Positions 1-9,129 of a stretch of DNA of 64,000 nt are shown here, piece after piece. Under the pieces are notes generated by a model that was given only the letters and a program-made list of their open reading frames with translations, made no database searches and was not told the origin of the DNA. The position numbers and the translations under genes are program-made. Numbering within the stretch: the first letter of the stretch is position 1; every line of letters begins with the position of its first letter. The DNA comes from Alteraurantiacibacter buctensis (GTDB lineage: Bacteria; Pseudomonadota; Alphaproteobacteria; Sphingomonadales; Sphingomonadaceae), in assembly GCF_009827655.1 (NCBI RefSeq), contig NZ_WTYV01000004.1, positions 124,001 to 188,000 of the forward strand, read 5' to 3'.

Positions 1-1202
1 ACGGCCAGCGATCCCACGGTGACCGCCAGGCTGTCCCCGGCGGCCACGTCATAGGGATAGCTCTGGTCGGTCAGCAGGCCCATCAACTGGCCGCATTCGC
101 TGGCCTGGGCATCGGCCAGGGGATCATAGCGGCAATCGGGGCCGGAGACGGTAATCGGCGCCTCACGCGTGGTCTGCGCCAGCCCCGGGTTCGCCAGTTC
201 GCCCAGCCCCCAGAATAACGGGAACAACAGCACGATGCTGGCCACATAGCCCCAGATGATGGGCTTCTTACGCCCGATCCGGTCCGACAGGCTGCCGAAC
301 CAGATCATGAATCCGATTGCCGCCAGCGAGCCCAGTCCCACGATCAGCTCAGCCGCGGTATCCTCCACCCGCATCGGCCCCTTCAGGAACGAAAGGGTGG
401 AGAAGAACGCGGTGTAGAACACGATCGTCAGCCCGCAGGCGACACCGAACAGGGCGACGACAATGCGCTTCCTGTTGCCGGGATAGGTGAAGCTTTCCAC
501 GAAGGGATTGTGCGACATCTCGCCCGCTTCCTTCATAGCGCGGAACACCGGGCTTTCGTTCAGCTTCAGCCGCATCCACAGGCTGACCGCCAGCAGGACG
601 ATGGAGATCAGGAATGGCAGGCGCCAGCCCCAGGCGGCAAAGGCATCGGCGGGAATCAGGAAGCGGCAGCCCAGCACCACAAGCAGGCTGAGAATGAATC
701 CGCCCACCACACTGGCCTGGATGAAGCTGGTATAGAAACCCCGCTTCCCCGCCGGGGCATGCTCCGCCACATAGATCGCCGCGCCGCCGTATTCGCCGCC
801 CAGCGCCAGCCCCTGGGCTATGCGCAGCAGGATCACCAGGACCGGCGCGGCATAGCCGATCGTCTCCACCGAAGGCACGAAGCCCACCCCGGCCGTGGCA
901 ATGCCCATCAGCGTTACCGTGACCAAGAAGGTGTACTTGCGGCCCAGCCGGTCTCCCAGATAACCGAACAGCACCGCACCCAGCGGGCGGAAACCGAAGC
1001 CGATGGCGAAGCCCGCCCAGGTCAGCAGCAGCGAGAAAGTGGCATTGTCTGCGGGGAAAAAGGCCTGGCTGACAAAGGCGGCCAGGGTGCCGTAGATGAA
1101 GAAATCATACCATTCGAACACGGTGCCGGCGGACGACGCCGCGATGACTAGGCGGATTTCTTTGGCCGACGGCTCATGTGCCTCGGTCATCTGCGTTGCC
1201 AT
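1..1202 (-). CDS. MFS transporter, metabolite:H+ symporter (MHS) family, 3'-truncated
   Basis: Integral inner-membrane transporter of the MHS branch of the major facilitator superfamily, which imports organic acids or osmolytes with protons. The reading frame opens with ATG at 1202 and runs off the left edge after about 400 codons, so the C-terminus is missing. Early residues include the MHS-type FEWYDFF motif near residue 30, followed by a GYLGDRLGRK loop between helices 2 and 3, LRIAQGLALGGEYGGA in helix 4, and SDRIGRKKPI in the central loop; several hydrophobic helices are visible. It lies 38 bases downstream of the NifU-like gene on the same strand and may be read through from that operon. 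The substrate cannot be told from sequence. Confidence 0.85.
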   Translation of the reverse strand, partial: MATQMTEAHEPSAKEIRLVIAASSAGTVFEWYDFFIYGTLAAFVSQAFFPADNATFSLLLTWAGFAIGFGFRPLGAVLFGYLGDRLGRKYTFLVTVTLMGIATAGVGFVPSVETIGYAAPVLVILLRIAQGLALGGEYGGAAIYVAEHAPAGKRGFYTSFIQASVVGGFILSLLVVLGCRFLIPADAFAAWGWRLPFLISIVLLAVSLWMRLKLNESPVFRAMKEAGEMSHNPFVESFTYPGNRKRIVVALFGVACGLTIVFYTAFFSTLSFLKGPMRVEDTAAELIVGLGSLAAIGFMIWFGSLSDRIGRKKPIIWGYVASIVLLFPLFWGLGELANPGLAQTTREAPITVSGPDCRYDPLADAQASECGQLMGLLTDQSYPYDVAAGDSLAVTVGSLA

Positions 1203-1240
1203 TGTCTTCGATCCCCCGCCTGACCTCGTCGTCGCAGGGA

Positions 1241-1672
1241 CTAGCTGGCTGCGGGCGCGCTGGAAAGGGCCGCGATGGCGGCCTTCCACGGCAGCATGAT
1301 CGCGCCGTGCCGAGCGGGATAGTGACGCGCCGGCTCAAGCATGGCCAGGCCCGGCCAGTCGGGCAAGGGCGCCTCGCCATCCAGCCAGCCCTCGATCCGG
1401 TCATGCATGGCCTGCAGGGCGGCAAGGTCGCAGCCCTTGGCATGCCGGGCGAACAGCGTGGCGCTGGCCTGGCCCACGGCGCAGGCCCGCACCCGCAGGC
1501 CCATCGTGTCGATCCGGCCCGCCTCGTCCAGCGCCAGGTCCACCGCCAGGGTGCTGCCGCAAGTAGGAGCCCGCGCATCGCCATGCAGCGGCAGGTTTTC
1601 CATTGCCGGCCACTGCGCCAGCTCCAGCGTCAGGGCCAGCATTTCGGGCGTGTAGAGGCGTTCGGCGGACAC
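1241..1672 (-). CDS. NifU/IscU/SufU-like iron-sulfur scaffold-family protein with missing ligands
   Basis: A 143-residue protein of the IscU/SufU fold, last gene of the radA-cvpA operon, starting at GTG 1672 one base after the cvpA stop. SufU proteins bind a nascent cluster or zinc with three Cys and one Asp. Here Cys38 (PTCGS) and Cys64 (RACAVGQAS) sit at the first two Cys positions. The usual Asp after the first Cys-Gly is Ser40. In the C-terminal motif (YPARHGAIMLPWKAA) the third Cys position reads as Ala124. Cys81 lies elsewhere and does not match the pattern. The fold assignment is fair, but a scaffold role is doubtful given two absent ligands. It may be an alphaproteobacterial variant with another role. 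The alignment was made by eye. Confidence 0.7.
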   Translation of the reverse strand: MSAERLYTPEMLALTLELAQWPAMENLPLHGDARAPTCGSTLAVDLALDEAGRIDTMGLRVRACAVGQASATLFARHAKGCDLAALQAMHDRIEGWLDGEAPLPDWPGLAMLEPARHYPARHGAIMLPWKAAIAALSSAPAAS

Positions 1673-1673
1673 C

Positions 1674-2207
1674 TCAGTTGTGCCCTTCTACCGATTGCTC
1701 AGCTTCGCTGTGGGCATAGGCGCGCCGCTGCTCGATCAGTTGCACCATGGCTTCGGAACTGGCGTTGACGAACGGATAGGTGCGGGCCGTGCTGATCCAC
1801 AGTGGCCGCCCGCTGGGGCCCCAGACCGCATCGTATCCCAGCACCAGCAGCGAAAAAGCCATCACCACCACAATCACGCCCTTCACCGCGCCGAAGCCGA
1901 AGCCCAGCACCCGGTCGATCGGGCCAAGCGCGGAACCCCGCGCGCTCTTGCCCGCCCTGGCAGCGATCGCGCGCATGGCCAGGTAGGGGATCAGCAGCAG
2001 CAGGGCAAAAGCCAGCAGGGCAGCGCTGATCGGGCCGCCGGTAAAGGCGTGGATGGCTGCCGTCATGTCCGTGTGCAGGAACCGCAGCGCCAGTACGGCC
2101 ACTACCCAGGCAGCGAGCGACAGCATCTCCTGCACGAAACCGCGCATGAAGCCGCCAGCGGCGGTTACGCCCACGATCAGCAGGACCAGGAAATCGAACA
2201 CGGTCAT
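1674..2207 (-). CDS. cvpA: CvpA family membrane protein
   Basis: A 177-residue inner-membrane protein of the colicin V production (CvpA) family. Several hydrophobic helices are visible: residues about 5-23, 27-45, 58-80 and 98-120. The typical N-terminal pattern TVFDFLVLLIVGVTAAGGFMRGF is followed by a Gly-rich segment (GPIDRVLGFGFGAVKGV) that is characteristic of the family. The C-terminal 30 residues are polar. It sits 11 bases after radA and 1 base before the NifU-like gene, so the three are almost certainly one transcript. CvpA proteins have been linked to envelope integrity and, in enterobacteria, to purF operon expression; the role here is not evident. Confidence 0.88.
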   Translation of the reverse strand: MTVFDFLVLLIVGVTAAGGFMRGFVQEMLSLAAWVVAVLALRFLHTDMTAAIHAFTGGPISAALLAFALLLLIPYLAMRAIAARAGKSARGSALGPIDRVLGFGFGAVKGVIVVVMAFSLLVLGYDAVWGPSGRPLWISTARTYPFVNASSEAMVQLIEQRRAYAHSEAEQSVEGHN

Positions 2208-2218
2208 CGCCCGCCAGC

Positions 2219-3598
2219 CTATGCCGATGCCATCACCCGGTCAACGAGCGCGGCGAGCCCGGGCAGCCCGGCATAGCGCATGCCTCCTTTGGCCGGGCCT
2301 TCCCCGCTCGCCTCGCTGCGTGGGCCGGTGGCCTGGTCGAAGCCCAGCTTGGCCGCTTCCTTGAGGCGCAGGTTGCCGTGGGCCACCGGGCGGATCTCGC
2401 CCGATAGAGAGACCTCGCCGAACCATACCGAACGCATCGGCAACGGCTTGTCCGCCAGCGCCGAAACCAGCGCGGCAGCGACTGCTAGATCTGCCGCCGG
2501 GTCAGCCAGACGATAGCCGCCGGCCACGTTGAGATAGACCTCTGCCGAGGAGAAGTTGAGCCCGTAGCGGGCCTCAAGCACGGCCAGCAGCATGGCCATG
2601 CGGCCGCTGTCCCAGCCCACTACCGCGCGGCGCGGGGTGGCGCCCGATTGCAGCCGCACGATCAGCGCCTGGATTTCCACCAGCACGGGCCGGGTGCCTT
2701 CCAGTGCCGGGAACACGGCGCTGCCCGCCACCGGCTCGTCCCGCCCGGTGAGGAACAGCATGGAAGGGTTGCCAACCTCGACCAGCCCCTGCCCTTCCAT
2801 GGCGAAGACGCCGATCTCGTCCACCGCGCCGAAACGGTTCTTCAGCGCGCGCAGGATGCGGTACTGATGGCTGCGCTCGCCCTCGAAGCTCATCACCACG
2901 TCCACCATGTGCTCCAGCACGCGTGGCCCGGCGATGGAGCCATCCTTGGTGACATGGCCCACCAGCACCAGGGCGACGTTGTTTTCCTTGGCGTAGCGGA
3001 TCAGTTCAAAGGCGCTGGCGCGGACCTGGCTGACAGTGCCCGGCGCACCCTCGATCATGTCGGAATGCATCGTCTGGATCGAATCGATCACCACCAGCGC
3101 GGGCGGCGGGCCATCGGCCAGCGTGGTAAGGATATCGCGCACCGATGTGGCACTGGCGAGCTTCAGCGGCGCATCGGCCAGGCCCAGCCGTGTGGCGCGC
3201 AGCCGCACCTGGCCGGCGGCCTCTTCACCGCTGATGTAGACGGCAAGGCCGCCTCCGCGGGCCACGCTGGCTGCAGCCTGCAGCAGCAGGGTCGATTTGC
3301 CGATGCCCGGCTCTCCACCCATCAGGATGGCGCTGCCCGGCACGATACCGCCGCCCAGCGCCCGGTCCAGCTCGGCAATACCACTGCTCTGGCGGACAAG
3401 CGGCCTGGTGGGGGTGTCCAGCGCCTCGAAAGCGATCACCCGGCCCCCGGCAGAAAGATCATGCTTGGCGGTGAAAACCGACTCCGGCGCTTCCTCGGTA
3501 AGGGTGTTCCACGCCCCGCAATCGGCGCACTGGCCCTGCCAGCGGTGGGTAACGCTGCCGCATTCGGTGCAGACATATCGGCGTTTGGGCTTGGCCAT
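2219..3598 (-). CDS. radA: DNA repair protein RadA/Sms
   Basis: RadA is a hexameric, DnaB-like branch-migration helicase that processes recombination intermediates. The 459-residue protein has all expected parts: an N-terminal four-Cys zinc finger (CTECG...CADCGAW, residues about 10-30), a Walker A motif GGEPGIGKST near residue 95, the RadA-specific KNRFG motif near 255, and a C-terminal Lon-protease-like domain (about 290-455) with GEVSLSGEIRPV. Start ATG at 3598 gives the standard N-terminus MAKPKRRYVC. It heads a minus-strand operon with cvpA and the NifU-like gene. A GAAC-N7-GAAC element matching the alphaproteobacterial LexA box lies 19 bases upstream of the start codon, suggesting SOS control. 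Confidence 0.97.
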   Translation of the reverse strand: MAKPKRRYVCTECGSVTHRWQGQCADCGAWNTLTEEAPESVFTAKHDLSAGGRVIAFEALDTPTRPLVRQSSGIAELDRALGGGIVPGSAILMGGEPGIGKSTLLLQAAASVARGGGLAVYISGEEAAGQVRLRATRLGLADAPLKLASATSVRDILTTLADGPPPALVVIDSIQTMHSDMIEGAPGTVSQVRASAFELIRYAKENNVALVLVGHVTKDGSIAGPRVLEHMVDVVMSFEGERSHQYRILRALKNRFGAVDEIGVFAMEGQGLVEVGNPSMLFLTGRDEPVAGSAVFPALEGTRPVLVEIQALIVRLQSGATPRRAVVGWDSGRMAMLLAVLEARYGLNFSSAEVYLNVAGGYRLADPAADLAVAAALVSALADKPLPMRSVWFGEVSLSGEIRPVAHGNLRLKEAAKLGFDQATGPRSEASGEGPAKGGMRYAGLPGLAALVDRVMASA

Positions 3599-3616
3599 AG
3601 TGGCATTGCCTAATCA

Positions 3617-3631
3617 GAACATAGGTGGAAC
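3617..3631. promoter_or_regulatory. Putative LexA (SOS) box between radA and patatin gene
   Basis: The plus strand reads GAACATAGGTGGAAC, that is GAAC-N7-GAAC, equal to GTTC-N7-GTTC on the minus strand. This is the direct-repeat LexA operator known from Rhodobacter, Sinorhizobium and Caulobacter. It lies 19 bases upstream of the radA ATG (minus) and 55 bases upstream of the patatin ATG (plus), so it could repress either or both. The match to both half sites and to spacing is exact. Confidence 0.7.
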
Positions 3632-3685
3632 GCAATGGGCATGTGCGATTGCCAAGCGCGCTTTCCACCTGCACAAGGTGTAACC

Positions 3686-6007
3686 ATGCGCCAGAAGGAA
3701 CTCCGCATTGCCCTGATCTGTTACGGCGGCGTCAGCCTGGCTGTGTACATGCATGGCGTCACCAAGGAAATCTGGCACCTCGCCCGCGCCAGCCGGGCCT
3801 TTCATGCGCGGGAAATTTCTGGAATTGCAGGGGAAAAAGGCAGCGCGGCGATTTACGCCGAAATGCTGGATACCATCGCACGAGAGCAGGGCCTGGCTCT
3901 GCGGGTCCTGCCCGATATCCTGACCGGCGCCAGCGCGGGCGGCATAAACGCGGTGTTCCTGGCCCAGGCTGTGAATTCCGGCCAGTCGCTTGATCCGCTG
4001 ACCGACCTGTGGCTGGAAACGGCCGATGTCGACCGGCTGCTCGATCCGGCAGCAGATGTCTGGACCCGCACTGTCAAGTTCTGGGCGCCGCCAGTGGTGC
4101 AACTGCTCCTGTCCCGTCCCGGCAACGTGGTGTCGGAAAGCGTCGCCCCGGAAATGCGGCAGGAAGTGCGCGGCAAACTGGCGCAGTTCGTGCGCAGCCG
4201 GTGGTTCGAGCCGCCCTTTTCCGGCTATGGCTTCTCTGCCCTGCTGGCCGATGCGCTGCAGGCGATGGCCGCAGGTCCGCCGGGCGAGCCCCTGTTGCCG
4301 CCAGGCCACCCGGTTGATCTGTCTGTCACTGCCACCGATTTCCACGGCTATCGCCAGCGGCTCCAACTCAACAGCCCGCCCGTGGTGGAAGAGAGCGAGC
4401 ACCGGCTGACCATCGGCTTTCGCAGCCGGGTGCCGCAGCAGGCCGGCCATGCGCTGGCCCCGCTGCCCGAATTGCTACTGGCGGCGCGCTCCACCGCCAG
4501 CTTCCCCGGCGCCTTTCCGCCGCTGCGTCTGGGAGAGATCGACCGGCTGGCGGCAGACCGGGGCTTTGCCTGGCCGGGGCGCGAGGCTTTCCTCGCCCGC
4601 GTGATGCCAGCGCGCCAGAGCGCGGCAGAGTGCGAAGCGGTCTCGCTGATCGACGGATCGGTGCTGGTCAACGCGCCGTTCTCTGAGGCCATGAGTGCGC
4701 TGCAGGACCGGCCTGCCCAGCGCGAGGTGGACCGGCGCTTCGTCTACATCGACCCTACGCCCGATGCAGCCACCCGGGCACTGGCCCCGCAGGGAGATGT
4801 CGGCTTCTTTCGCGCGATCTTCGGCTCGATTTCCTCGATCCCGCGCGAACAGCCGATCCGTGACAACCTGGAAGCGATTGGCGCGCAATCGCGCGAGGCA
4901 GCCCGCTTGCAACGCATGGTGGAAACCTTGCGCCCTGATGTGGAACGGACGGTTGAGAAGCTGTTTGGCGGCACCTTCTTCCTCGATCGGCCGACGTCGG
5001 CGCGGCTGTCTGCCTGGCGGGCCAAGGCCCAGCAGGCGGCGGCGGAGCAGGCGGGTTATGCCTTCCACTCCTATGCCCAGGCCAAGTTCGCCGGCATCGT
5101 CGACCGGCTGGCAAAGTTGATCGAGGCCCACGTTCCCGGGTTGCACGCAGAAGGGGGATCACTGGCGGATTTGCTCACCAGCTATCTCGATGCGGCAGGC
5201 CTCGGCGCATTGGGCGGTAGCAAGGGCGGCGCCAGCGAAGAGGCCATCGCCTTTTTCCGCGCGCACGACATCGGCTATCGCATCCGCCGCCTGCGCCTGA
5301 TCGCCCGCCGCCTGACGCGTGAATGGGATGACGATCCGGAAGTCACCGATGCCGACCGCGATGCCGCACGCGAGGTGATCTATTGCATGCTGGCGCTCTA
5401 TTTCGCCCGGGAGGGTAGCGATGCGCTGGGGCCGCAGTTTTCGCATGTGGCCGAGCGGGTGCTTATCGATCCCGGCCCGGTGCTGGCGGAAATCGCCCGC
5501 CTGCGCCAACTGGAAGCGCTGGATGAGCAGGCCGAGGCGATGCTGGCCGCCGGGCTGGAGGCCATGCCCCGCCCGCTGCGGCGCAAGGTGCTGATGGCCT
5601 ACCTTGGCTTTGCCTTCTACGATGTTGCCACCCTGCCCCTGCTGCGTAACGAAGGGCTGACCGAGTTCGACCCGGTAAAGGTTGACCGCATTTCGCCAGA
5701 GGATGCCGCATCAATCCGTGGGGGCGGTTGTGCGGCCACCTTGCGCGGCATCGAGTTCTACAACTTCGGCGCCTTCTTCAGCCGCGCCTATCGCGAGAAC
5801 GATTACCTGTGGGGCCGCCTGCACGGCGCGGAAAGGATGGTTGACCTGCTCCTTTCCGCCACCATTGCGCCATTGGCGCCAGATGCGATCCGGGCAATCA
5901 AGCGTCGCCTGTTCATGGCCATCCTTGACGAGGAACAGCCGCGCCTGCGGGCCGACCCGGCGCTGATTCCCGGCCTCAGGCGCGAGGTGGCTGCGCGCCT
6001 GGGCTAA
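3686..6007 (+). CDS. Patatin-like phospholipase family protein (large, DUF3376-type)
   Basis: A 773-residue patatin-fold lipid acyl hydrolase with a Ser-Asp dyad. The oxyanion-hole stretch CYGGVSLAVYMHGVTKEIW is at residues 12-30, the nucleophile elbow GASAGG places Ser83, and DGSVLVNAPF places the catalytic Asp323. A long helical C-terminal region (about 390-770) without signal peptide or membrane segment follows, as in the larger DUF3376-type patatins. ATG 3686 is preferred over the in-frame ATG 3635 because AAGGTG lies just upstream and the conserved N-terminus begins there. The gene is divergent from radA and shares with it a LexA-type site. Its stop overlaps the dnaJ stop by four bases (CTAA). 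The lipid substrate is unknown. Confidence 0.88.
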   Translation: MRQKELRIALICYGGVSLAVYMHGVTKEIWHLARASRAFHAREISGIAGEKGSAAIYAEMLDTIAREQGLALRVLPDILTGASAGGINAVFLAQAVNSGQSLDPLTDLWLETADVDRLLDPAADVWTRTVKFWAPPVVQLLLSRPGNVVSESVAPEMRQEVRGKLAQFVRSRWFEPPFSGYGFSALLADALQAMAAGPPGEPLLPPGHPVDLSVTATDFHGYRQRLQLNSPPVVEESEHRLTIGFRSRVPQQAGHALAPLPELLLAARSTASFPGAFPPLRLGEIDRLAADRGFAWPGREAFLARVMPARQSAAECEAVSLIDGSVLVNAPFSEAMSALQDRPAQREVDRRFVYIDPTPDAATRALAPQGDVGFFRAIFGSISSIPREQPIRDNLEAIGAQSREAARLQRMVETLRPDVERTVEKLFGGTFFLDRPTSARLSAWRAKAQQAAAEQAGYAFHSYAQAKFAGIVDRLAKLIEAHVPGLHAEGGSLADLLTSYLDAAGLGALGGSKGGASEEAIAFFRAHDIGYRIRRLRLIARRLTREWDDDPEVTDADRDAAREVIYCMLALYFAREGSDALGPQFSHVAERVLIDPGPVLAEIARLRQLEALDEQAEAMLAAGLEAMPRPLRRKVLMAYLGFAFYDVATLPLLRNEGLTEFDPVKVDRISPEDAASIRGGGCAATLRGIEFYNFGAFFSRAYRENDYLWGRLHGAERMVDLLLSATIAPLAPDAIRAIKRRLFMAILDEEQPRLRADPALIPGLRREVAARLG

Positions 6008-7131
6008 CCTGAAAAGGCGTCCTTCAACCGGTCGAAGAAGCCGCGGCTTTCCGGGCATTCCTCGCCCGTTTCCGTCTCGCGGAACTCGCACAGCAATTCC
6101 TTCTGGCGGGCGGTGAGGCGGGTGGGCGTTTCCACCTGCACCTCCACCACCAGATCGCCCCGCCCGCGTCCCTGAAGGACCGGCATGCCGGCCCCGCGCT
6201 TGCGCAACTGCTTGCCGCTCTGGATGCCGGCGGAAATGTCGATCCTGTGCGTTTCGCCATCCAGACCCGGAATTTCCACGCTGCCACCCAGTGCTGCGGT
6301 GGTGAAACTGATCGGCATCCGGGTGAACAGGGCCGTGCCTTCCCGCTCGAACACCGCGTGACGGCGCACCTGAATGAAGATGTAGAGATCGCCCGCCGGA
6401 GCGCCCATCGGCCCTGCTTCGCCCTTGCCGGCCAGTCGGATACGGGTGCCGTTATCCACGCCTGGGGGAATATCCACCTGCAGTTTCTGGATGGTGTCGC
6501 TTCGCCCTTCACCGCCGCAATCGCGGCAGGGCTTTTCCAGCATCTCGCCCCGGCCGTGGCATTGCGGACAGGGCCGTTCGATCACGAACAGGCCCTGCTG
6601 CGCGCGGACCTTGCCGTGCCCGTGGCAGGTGCCGCAGGCACGACGGCCGGTGCCGGGGGTTGCCCCGCTGCCAGAGCAGGTGGTGCAGGCGGTGGCCACT
6701 TCCACCTCGATCTCGGCCTGCTTGCCATGGAAGGCATCTTCAAGCCCGATCTCCAGGTCATAGCGCAGGTCAGCACCGCGGCGCGGCCGGGCACGCCCGC
6801 CGCCGCCAAAGGCGCTGCCAAAGATTGTCTCGAAGATATCACCGATATCGCCGAAGTCCGCGCCGCCGGCAAAACCGCCCGCGCCGGGTCCTCCGCCGCC
6901 TTGGGTGAAGGCGGCATGGCCATAGCGGTCATAGGCCGCGCGCTTCTGCGGATCCTTCAGGCAATCATACGCCACACTGATCGCCTTGAAGCGGGCTTCT
7001 GCCTCGGCATCGCCCGGATTGCGGTCCGGGTGCCACTTCATAGCCAGCTTGCGATAGGCGCGCTTTATGGTGTCGCCGTCGGCGGTGCGTTCCACCTCCA
7101 GCAATTGGTAGAAATCGATGTCGGTCGACAT
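6004..7131 (-). CDS. dnaJ: Molecular chaperone DnaJ (Hsp40)
   Basis: Co-chaperone that delivers unfolded substrates to DnaK and stimulates its ATPase. The 375-residue protein has an N-terminal J domain with the HPD motif at residues 34-36, a Gly/Phe-rich linker (about 75-110), four CxxCxGxG zinc-binding repeats (CTTCSGSG, CGTCHGHG, CPQCHGRG, CRDCGGEG; about 145-215), and a C-terminal substrate-binding region. ATG 7131 is chosen because the J domain starts immediately after it and GAGGGG lies just upstream; an in-frame extension to 7173 would run into the intercistronic hairpin. It is the second gene of dnaK-dnaJ and converges with the patatin gene. Confidence 0.97.
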   Translation of the reverse strand: MSTDIDFYQLLEVERTADGDTIKRAYRKLAMKWHPDRNPGDAEAEARFKAISVAYDCLKDPQKRAAYDRYGHAAFTQGGGGPGAGGFAGGADFGDIGDIFETIFGSAFGGGGRARPRRGADLRYDLEIGLEDAFHGKQAEIEVEVATACTTCSGSGATPGTGRRACGTCHGHGKVRAQQGLFVIERPCPQCHGRGEMLEKPCRDCGGEGRSDTIQKLQVDIPPGVDNGTRIRLAGKGEAGPMGAPAGDLYIFIQVRRHAVFEREGTALFTRMPISFTTAALGGSVEIPGLDGETHRIDISAGIQSGKQLRKRGAGMPVLQGRGRGDLVVEVQVETPTRLTARQKELLCEFRETETGEECPESRGFFDRLKDAFSG

Positions 7132-7143
7132 GCGGGACCCCTC

Positions 7144-7182
7144 AAAAACCTGCCGCCACCGGCACGATTGCACCGGTGGCGG
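7144..7182 (-). terminator. Intercistronic hairpin with U-run between dnaK and dnaJ (attenuator)
   Basis: On the minus strand a perfect 10-bp stem (CCGCCACCGG / CCGGTGGCGG, arms at 7173-7182 and 7153-7162) with a 10-base loop is followed after CAGG by TTTTT and then the dnaJ ribosome-binding region. It lies wholly inside the 72-base dnaK-dnaJ gap. It has the form of an intrinsic terminator and probably allows partial read-through. Confidence 0.6.
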
Positions 7183-7203
7183 GCTGGCTTTCCATCAGGC
7201 TGA

Positions 7204-9129
<1,926 letters not shown>

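What the first reader, a model, noticed from the sequence alone, without database searches (positions are those of the whole stretch)
3617..3631. LexA-type operator shared by radA and a divergent patatin-like phospholipase
The spacer carries GAAC-N7-GAAC, an exact match in half sites and spacing to the alphaproteobacterial LexA box, 19 bases from the radA ATG and 55 bases from the patatin ATG. SOS control of radA would fit its role in recombination. Control of a phospholipase by the same site would be new and would link DNA damage to membrane lipid hydrolysis, a logic known from abortive-infection effectors.
Basis: partly seen in the sequence, partly recalled or inferred. Interest (0 to 1): 0.7.

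Follow-up and report, generated by a model that had tools for sequence, protein, structure and literature searches.

The report
LexA operator inside the radA promoter
The short repeat is very probably a real DNA-damage (SOS) switch that in this bacterial family travels with the DNA-repair gene radA, while the neighbouring lipid-cutting gene looks like a bystander whose own promoter, in this genome, lies just beyond the switch.

Summary
GAAC-N7-GAAC is at 3617-3631, the only exact copy in the window. One per 64 kb is what chance gives, so the case is comparative. Of the 80 best radA relatives, 78 have an exact box starting 30-34 nt before the radA start, with a variable N7. In this genome lexA, recA, uvrA, a UvrD/PcrA-type helicase and rmuC carry it too. 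Conserved flanks put it between the -35 and -10 of a nearly leaderless radA promoter.

The shared-operator claim is not supported. In 33 genomes where patatin lies away from radA, 1 has a box at patatin; of 31 of them checked at radA, 25 have it. Seven genomes with no patatin match still have the radA box. Patatin has its own promoter: in 38 compact relatives its -35 starts 4 bp from the box, so LexA could cover both; here it starts 17 bp away.

radA induction with SOS genes is in print for a sphingomonad (PMC6472365), and a LexA box upstream of a patatin gene has been predicted in Shewanella (PMC4471891). Verdict: a sound LexA operator for radA; SOS control of the phospholipase unlikely here, untested in compact relatives.

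The parts
3617..3631 (-). LexA operator, read GTTC-CACCTAT-GTTC in the radA direction
   Evidence: exact GAAC-N7-GAAC; 78 of 80 relatives at the same place
3630..3635 (-). inferred radA -35 (TTGCGT); overlaps the outer two bases of the box
   Evidence: GCAA directly after the box in 58 of 58 patatin-adjacent loci, but in only 23 of 61 separated or patatin-free ones
3607..3612 (-). inferred radA -10 (TAGGCA), 17 bp from the -35; the box lies between the two
   Evidence: TA at this offset from the box in 74 of 78 loci, at most 6 of 78 at any other offset tried
2219..3598 (-). radA (sms), 459 aa
   Evidence: TIGR00416, 525 bits against cut-off 403
1674..2207 (-). cvpA-like gene starting 11 bases past the radA stop; probably in the radA transcript (inferred)
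   Evidence: PF02674, 99 bits; coordinates
3649..3654 (+). inferred patatin -35 (TTGCCA), 17 bp beyond the LexA box
   Evidence: TTGC 35-37 nt before the patatin start in 38 of 38 compact loci, and at 37 here and in L035
3672..3677 (+). inferred patatin -10 (CACAAG); 8 bases to the start codon
   Evidence: first two bases at the aligned place in 38 compact loci are C 86% and A 76%; spacing 17
3686..6007 (+). patatin-like protein, 773 aa, TIGR03607 with DUF3376; GASAGG and DGS motifs present
   Evidence: TIGR03607 666 bits, PF01734, PF11856; motifs read by eye from the translation, their catalytic meaning recalled

Best explanation
The site is a LexA operator set between the -35 and -10 of the radA promoter. 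LexA bound there blocks RNA polymerase; after DNA damage RecA-stimulated cleavage of LexA frees the promoter and radA (probably with cvpA behind it) is transcribed from a nearly leaderless start. The divergent patatin gene has its own promoter. In this genome 17 bp separate that promoter's -35 from the box (4 bp in compact relatives), so LexA is expected to have little direct effect on it. Shown by sequence: the box, its conservation at radA, the conserved flanking signatures, the lack of linkage to patatin. Inferred: LexA binding, repression, induction, promoter function and transcript starts.
For: 78 of 80 radA loci with an exact box starting at -30 to -34; the two exceptions, L092 and L097, have the box ahead of a GFA-family gene lying just upstream of radA. 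In genomes where patatin is away from radA, radA has the exact box in 25 of 31 (5 more with one mismatch, 1 without) and patatin in 1 of 33. Of 8 loci without patatin beside radA, 7 genomes gave no patatin match and still have the radA box; the eighth has patatin elsewhere with no exact box in its 5.3 kb locus. TA of the inferred radA -10 at a fixed offset in 74 of 78. Boxes at lexA, recA, uvrA, a UvrD/PcrA-type helicase, rmuC and pdeM in the same genome. Published radA induction listed under SOS (PMC6472365).
Against: No expression or binding data exist for this organism here. Promoter elements are inferred from conservation, not mapped, and the radA -35 letters GCAA are kept in only 23 of 61 loci without a neighbouring patatin. 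In compact relatives the box does abut the patatin -35, so co-control there is not excluded. One patatin away from radA (L138) has an exact box 84 nt upstream. In 4 of 16 further genomes with the genes 0.5-5.3 kb apart no exact box was found between them. Close relatives are not independent samples.
Confidence: 0.82

Rival explanations
1. One LexA operator represses both divergent genes, so DNA damage induces the phospholipase with radA.
For: In 38 compact loci the sequence after the box is GCAATTGC, giving back-to-back -35 elements; the patatin -35 then starts 4 bp from the box. The TTGC half occurs there in 38 of 38 compact loci and in 0 of 20 longer-spacer and 0 of 61 separated or patatin-free loci, so it belongs to patatin. 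A LexA box 194 nt upstream of a patatin gene is predicted in Shewanella piezotolerans (PMC4471891).
Against: The box does not follow patatin (1 of 33). In this genome and in L035 the patatin -35 is 17 and 19 bp from the box. The main text of the Sphingopyxis paper lists radA under SOS and never names patatin (its supplements were not open to me). The Shewanella entry has no expression change beside it and is a gammaproteobacterial box of another sequence.
Confidence: 0.15
2. The two promoters overlap, so freeing radA during SOS crowds polymerase off the patatin promoter: damage lowers patatin, the opposite of the reader's prediction.
For: The inferred radA -35 (3630-3635) and patatin -35 (3649-3654) are 13 bp apart on opposite strands here and closer in compact relatives, probably too near for two polymerases at once (geometry; polymerase footprint recalled).
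Against: No expression data; the effect may be small if the radA promoter is weak.
Confidence: 0.2
3. Chance match with no function.
For: About one exact match per 64 kb is expected at random.
Against: Position-specific conservation in 78 of 80 loci with variable N7 and a fixed offset to TA in 74 of 78.
Confidence: 0.02

Closest known systems
Alphaproteobacterial LexA box GTTC-N7-GTTC (Caulobacter consensus as given in a legend passage of PMC4211646)
   Same: half sites, spacing, direct-repeat form; present at lexA, recA and uvrA in this genome
   Different: the target: radA carries it in 78 of the 80 sphingomonad loci but in 1 of 40 radA genes sampled from other families of the class and order
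radA of Sphingopyxis granuli TFA (PMC6472365, table passage read)
   Same: radA listed under 'SOS DNA repair system', 5-fold up, with lexA, recA, dinG, imuAB-dnaE2
   Different: the condition was anaerobic growth, not a DNA-damaging drug; the passages read show no operator and no patatin
Predicted LexA box 194 nt upstream of a patatin gene (Swp4746) in Shewanella piezotolerans (PMC4471891, one table passage read)
   Same: a LexA box predicted ahead of a patatin-family gene
   Different: gammaproteobacterial CTGT-type box, no expression change given beside it, no radA mention in that text; relation of the two patatins not tested
Patatin-type abortive-infection effectors such as CapV (PMC9095652, search listing and abstract start only)
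   Same: patatin-like phospholipase family
   Different: this is the larger TIGR03607/DUF3376 type, no PADLOC match, a relative in 167 of 197 genomes of the order; a CD-NTase partner was not looked for

Membership tests
LexA (SOS) operator of Alphaproteobacteria | exact GTTC-N7-GTTC | tested here: met
LexA (SOS) operator of Alphaproteobacteria | same motif at lexA and recA of the same genome | tested here: met
   72 bases upstream of lexA, 77 bases upstream of recA
LexA (SOS) operator of Alphaproteobacteria | placed over promoter core | tested here: met
   between inferred radA -35 and -10; by sequence conservation only, no mapped transcript start
LexA (SOS) operator of Alphaproteobacteria | LexA binds and represses | not testable with these tools
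   needs binding assay and lexA mutant
SOS regulon, patatin gene as member | box retained upstream of the gene across relatives when away from radA | tested here: not met
   1 of 33; 0.54 expected by chance at this genome's site density
SOS regulon, patatin gene as member | induced by DNA damage through LexA | not testable with these tools
   no expression data
Abortive-infection/CBASS patatin effector | match to a known defence model | tested here: not met
   0 PADLOC families at E 0.001
Abortive-infection/CBASS patatin effector | linked sensor gene (CD-NTase) | not tested
   neighbours were seen only as an ORF list for 1-9000

The most novel reading that the evidence does not exclude
In the compact-spacer relatives (box directly followed by GCAATTGC) one LexA dimer covers the shared back-to-back -35 pair and makes a TIGR03607 phospholipase damage-inducible, tying DNA damage to membrane lipid turnover; the lineage of this window, with 13-15 more bases between box and patatin -35, has uncoupled the phospholipase again (or never had the coupling).
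Probability: 0.25. Interest if true: 0.55.

Novelty: new member of a known kind. Interest (0 to 1): 0.32.

Why it matters
It adds strong comparative support for radA as an SOS gene in the Sphingomonadaceae, possibly a lineage-specific addition since 39 of 40 radA genes sampled outside the family lack an exact box. It also shows how a shared spacer can mislead: two genes around one operator need not share control, and the relatives give a ready-made series of spacer lengths for asking when a repressor site reaches a neighbour's promoter.

Tried and rejected
Shared control of patatin was tested with patatin genes lying away from radA and is not supported for this genome. A defence role was tested with PADLOC: no match at E 0.001. 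The patatin has no sequence match in the PDB at E 0.001. Literature: no held paper joins DUF3376 with patatin. The patatin + LexA + SOS response search gave 5 papers; I read the patatin passages of 2 (PMC4471891, a predicted Shewanella box; PMC8940909, unrelated) and judged the other 3 by title and abstract start. The wider search was judged on its top 12 of 76 by title and abstract start. Erill et al. 2004 is not held.

Outgroup check: an exact box within 150 nt of radA in 1 of 40 genomes (34 of the 50 class genomes outside the own family whose radA passed the cut-off, plus 6 genomes of other families of the order; the hit, G015, is one of the 6); with one mismatch allowed 6 of 40 against 4 of 40 for the reversed control. 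recA has an exact box within 260 nt in 8 of 30 of the 56 class-sample genomes with recA (the 30 whose loci were given; 2 of them of the own family, 1 of these with the box). Six of the boxed genomes had radA sampled and none had a radA box. Power is limited: mostly exact boxes were counted and presence of LexA in each outgroup was not checked.

Limits of the samples: one search kept the best 80 of 562 relatives. The 33 and 16 genomes were picked by eye from the listed places and are not exhaustive. For G094 the radA place was not in the list, so its linkage is unknown; radA upstream was not fetched for G094 and G053. Completeness of the seven patatin-free genomes is not given and several are MAGs, so some absences may be gaps. 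The classes pool two samples that share some genomes, were not de-duplicated, leave out loci with no box near radA, and allow one mismatch in the second sample. imuA was named from a match far below its cut-off (28.5 against 150 bits); uvrA, the helicase, and rmuC were scanned as N-terminal pieces and so stay below full-length cut-offs. Boxes beside mobile genes were not followed up. dnaE2 was not checked. No structure was predicted: the question is about DNA.

Full report
Observation. The sequence GAACATAGGTGGAAC is at 3617-3631, the only exact GAAC-N7-GAAC in the window on either strand. The neighbours are radA on the minus strand (2219-3598, TIGR00416, 525 bits) and a TIGR03607/DUF3376 patatin-like protein on the plus strand (3686-6007, 666 bits). 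One match per window is what shuffled sequence gives, so the letters alone prove nothing.

Is it a LexA box in this genome? The own genome has 101 exact sites against 50 for the backwards control. I read the surroundings of the listed sites other than the window's own (loci, stretches): 99 distinct sites, of which 56 lie outside the ORFs predicted by a simple codon score or close to a start. Among the genes with a box just upstream are lexA (72 bases), recA (77), uvrA (68), a UvrD/PcrA-type helicase (4), rmuC (19), the endonuclease gene pdeM (box overlapping the predicted start) and a ribonucleotide reductase alpha subunit (64). Several of these are standard SOS genes. I scanned 10 of the 52 candidate proteins with NCBIfam and three more or repeated ones with Pfam; the rest were not sorted. 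dnaE2 was not checked.

Is it conserved at radA? A genome scan found 562 relatives of radA and kept the best 80. In 78 of these an exact box starts 30-34 nt before the radA start codon, while the seven middle bases vary. In the two exceptions, L092 and L097, a GFA-family gene sits just upstream of radA in the same direction and the box lies on its far side. So there too the box heads the unit that ends in radA.

Whose operator is it? The genes are not always neighbours, which allows a test. From a survey of 197 genomes of the order (patatin in 167, radA in 197) I picked by eye 33 genomes of the own family whose patatin lies far from radA or on another contig (for one, G094, the radA place was not listed). 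Upstream of patatin (600 nt) 1 of 33 has an exact box (L138, 84 nt upstream; 0.54 expected by chance at this genome's density). Upstream of radA in 31 of these genomes, 25 have an exact box, 5 have one with a single mismatch and 1 has none. In 16 further genomes with the genes divergent but 0.5 to 5.3 kb apart, 10 have an exact box within about 23 nt of radA, 2 have it 67 nt from patatin (G178, which is the genome of L097, and G155; both have a GFA-like gene between box and radA), and 4 have no exact box (one of these, L152, has a one-mismatch box at radA). None of the 16 has a second exact box at patatin. Of the 8 radA loci with no patatin within the flank held, 7 genomes gave no patatin match at all and still have the radA box; the eighth, Novosphingobium taihuense, has patatin elsewhere with no exact box in its 5.3 kb locus. 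The box follows radA.

How does it work? Two further conserved elements frame the box. On the radA side, TA sits 5-6 bases past the box in 74 of 78 loci and in at most 6 of 78 at any other offset tried. On the other side GCAA follows the box directly in 58 of 58 patatin-adjacent loci and in 23 of 61 others, where GCCA and other variants are common. Read in the radA direction this is TTGCGT, 17 bp, TA----: a -35 and a -10 with the LexA box between them. The -10 starts 11-15 nt before the start codon, so the radA message should be leaderless or nearly so. In the window these are 3630-3635 and 3607-3612. A repressor bound between -35 and -10 blocks polymerase; cleavage of LexA after damage would release it. 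That mechanism is inferred from the known LexA pathway. The cvpA-like gene begins 11 bases past the radA stop and is probably carried along.

What about patatin? In 38 compact loci (radA-patatin spacer 69-75 bases) the sequence after the box is GCAATTGC without exception. The second half, TTGC, is absent at that place in 20 of 20 longer-spacer loci and in 61 of 61 loci where patatin is separated or missing. So TTGC is most simply the patatin -35, 35-37 nt before its start codon, and it starts 4 bp from the box. A LexA dimer would probably reach it (footprint size recalled). In this window the patatin promoter keeps the same layout (TTGCCA 3649-3654, 17 bp, CACAAG 3672-3677, 8 bases to ATG), but its -35 starts 17 bp beyond the box, 13 more than in the compact loci; in L035 (Altererythrobacter sp. 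KTW20L) the gap is 19 bp. Direct repression by LexA is therefore unlikely here, though a weak effect on upstream contacts of polymerase, or competition between the two overlapping promoters, remains possible. The latter would lower patatin when radA is switched on.

Known or new? The Caulobacter LexA consensus GTTCN7GTTC is in print (PMC4211646, passages). radA is listed as 5-fold induced under 'SOS DNA repair system' in Sphingopyxis granuli TFA grown without oxygen (PMC6472365, passages); its main text does not contain the word patatin, and its supplements were not open to me. The word radA does not occur in the main text of the Caulobacter SOS paper PMC12700426 (find). A LexA box 194 nt upstream of a patatin gene is tabulated as a prediction for Shewanella piezotolerans, without an expression change beside it (PMC4471891, one passage), so the bare idea is not wholly new. 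Outside the own family an exact box within 150 nt of radA is found in 1 of 40 sampled genomes, against recA with an exact box in 8 of 30 of the class sample, so radA may have joined the SOS regulon in the sphingomonad line; this rests mainly on exact boxes and LexA itself was not checked in the outgroups. The operator is a new instance of a known kind. The phospholipase link, the surprising part of the finding, is not supported for this organism and is a testable idea for the compact relatives.

Noticed in passing
1674-2207: A cvpA-like gene (PF02674) starts 11 bases past the radA stop, so an SOS-controlled radA message would probably include it.
   Followed up: partly
L092:3553-3990, L097:3545-3997, L160: A GFA-family gene lies between the LexA box and radA, in the radA direction, keeping the box at the head of the unit (PF04828 for L092 and L097; L160 of G155 by eye).
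   Followed up: partly
L021, site 1501-1515: Exact LexA-type box 64 bases upstream of a ribonucleotide reductase alpha-subunit gene in the own genome.
   Followed up: no
L243 and L244: Contigs C20 and C21 of the own genome hold, near an end of each, the same two boxes in mirror order beside the same 273-aa gene, which suggests a repeated element or overlapping contig ends.
   Followed up: no
L207, L209, L216, L217: Several exact boxes lie beside an integrase (L216, PF00589) and integrase- or repressor-like genes judged by eye, hinting at damage-linked mobile elements.
   Followed up: no
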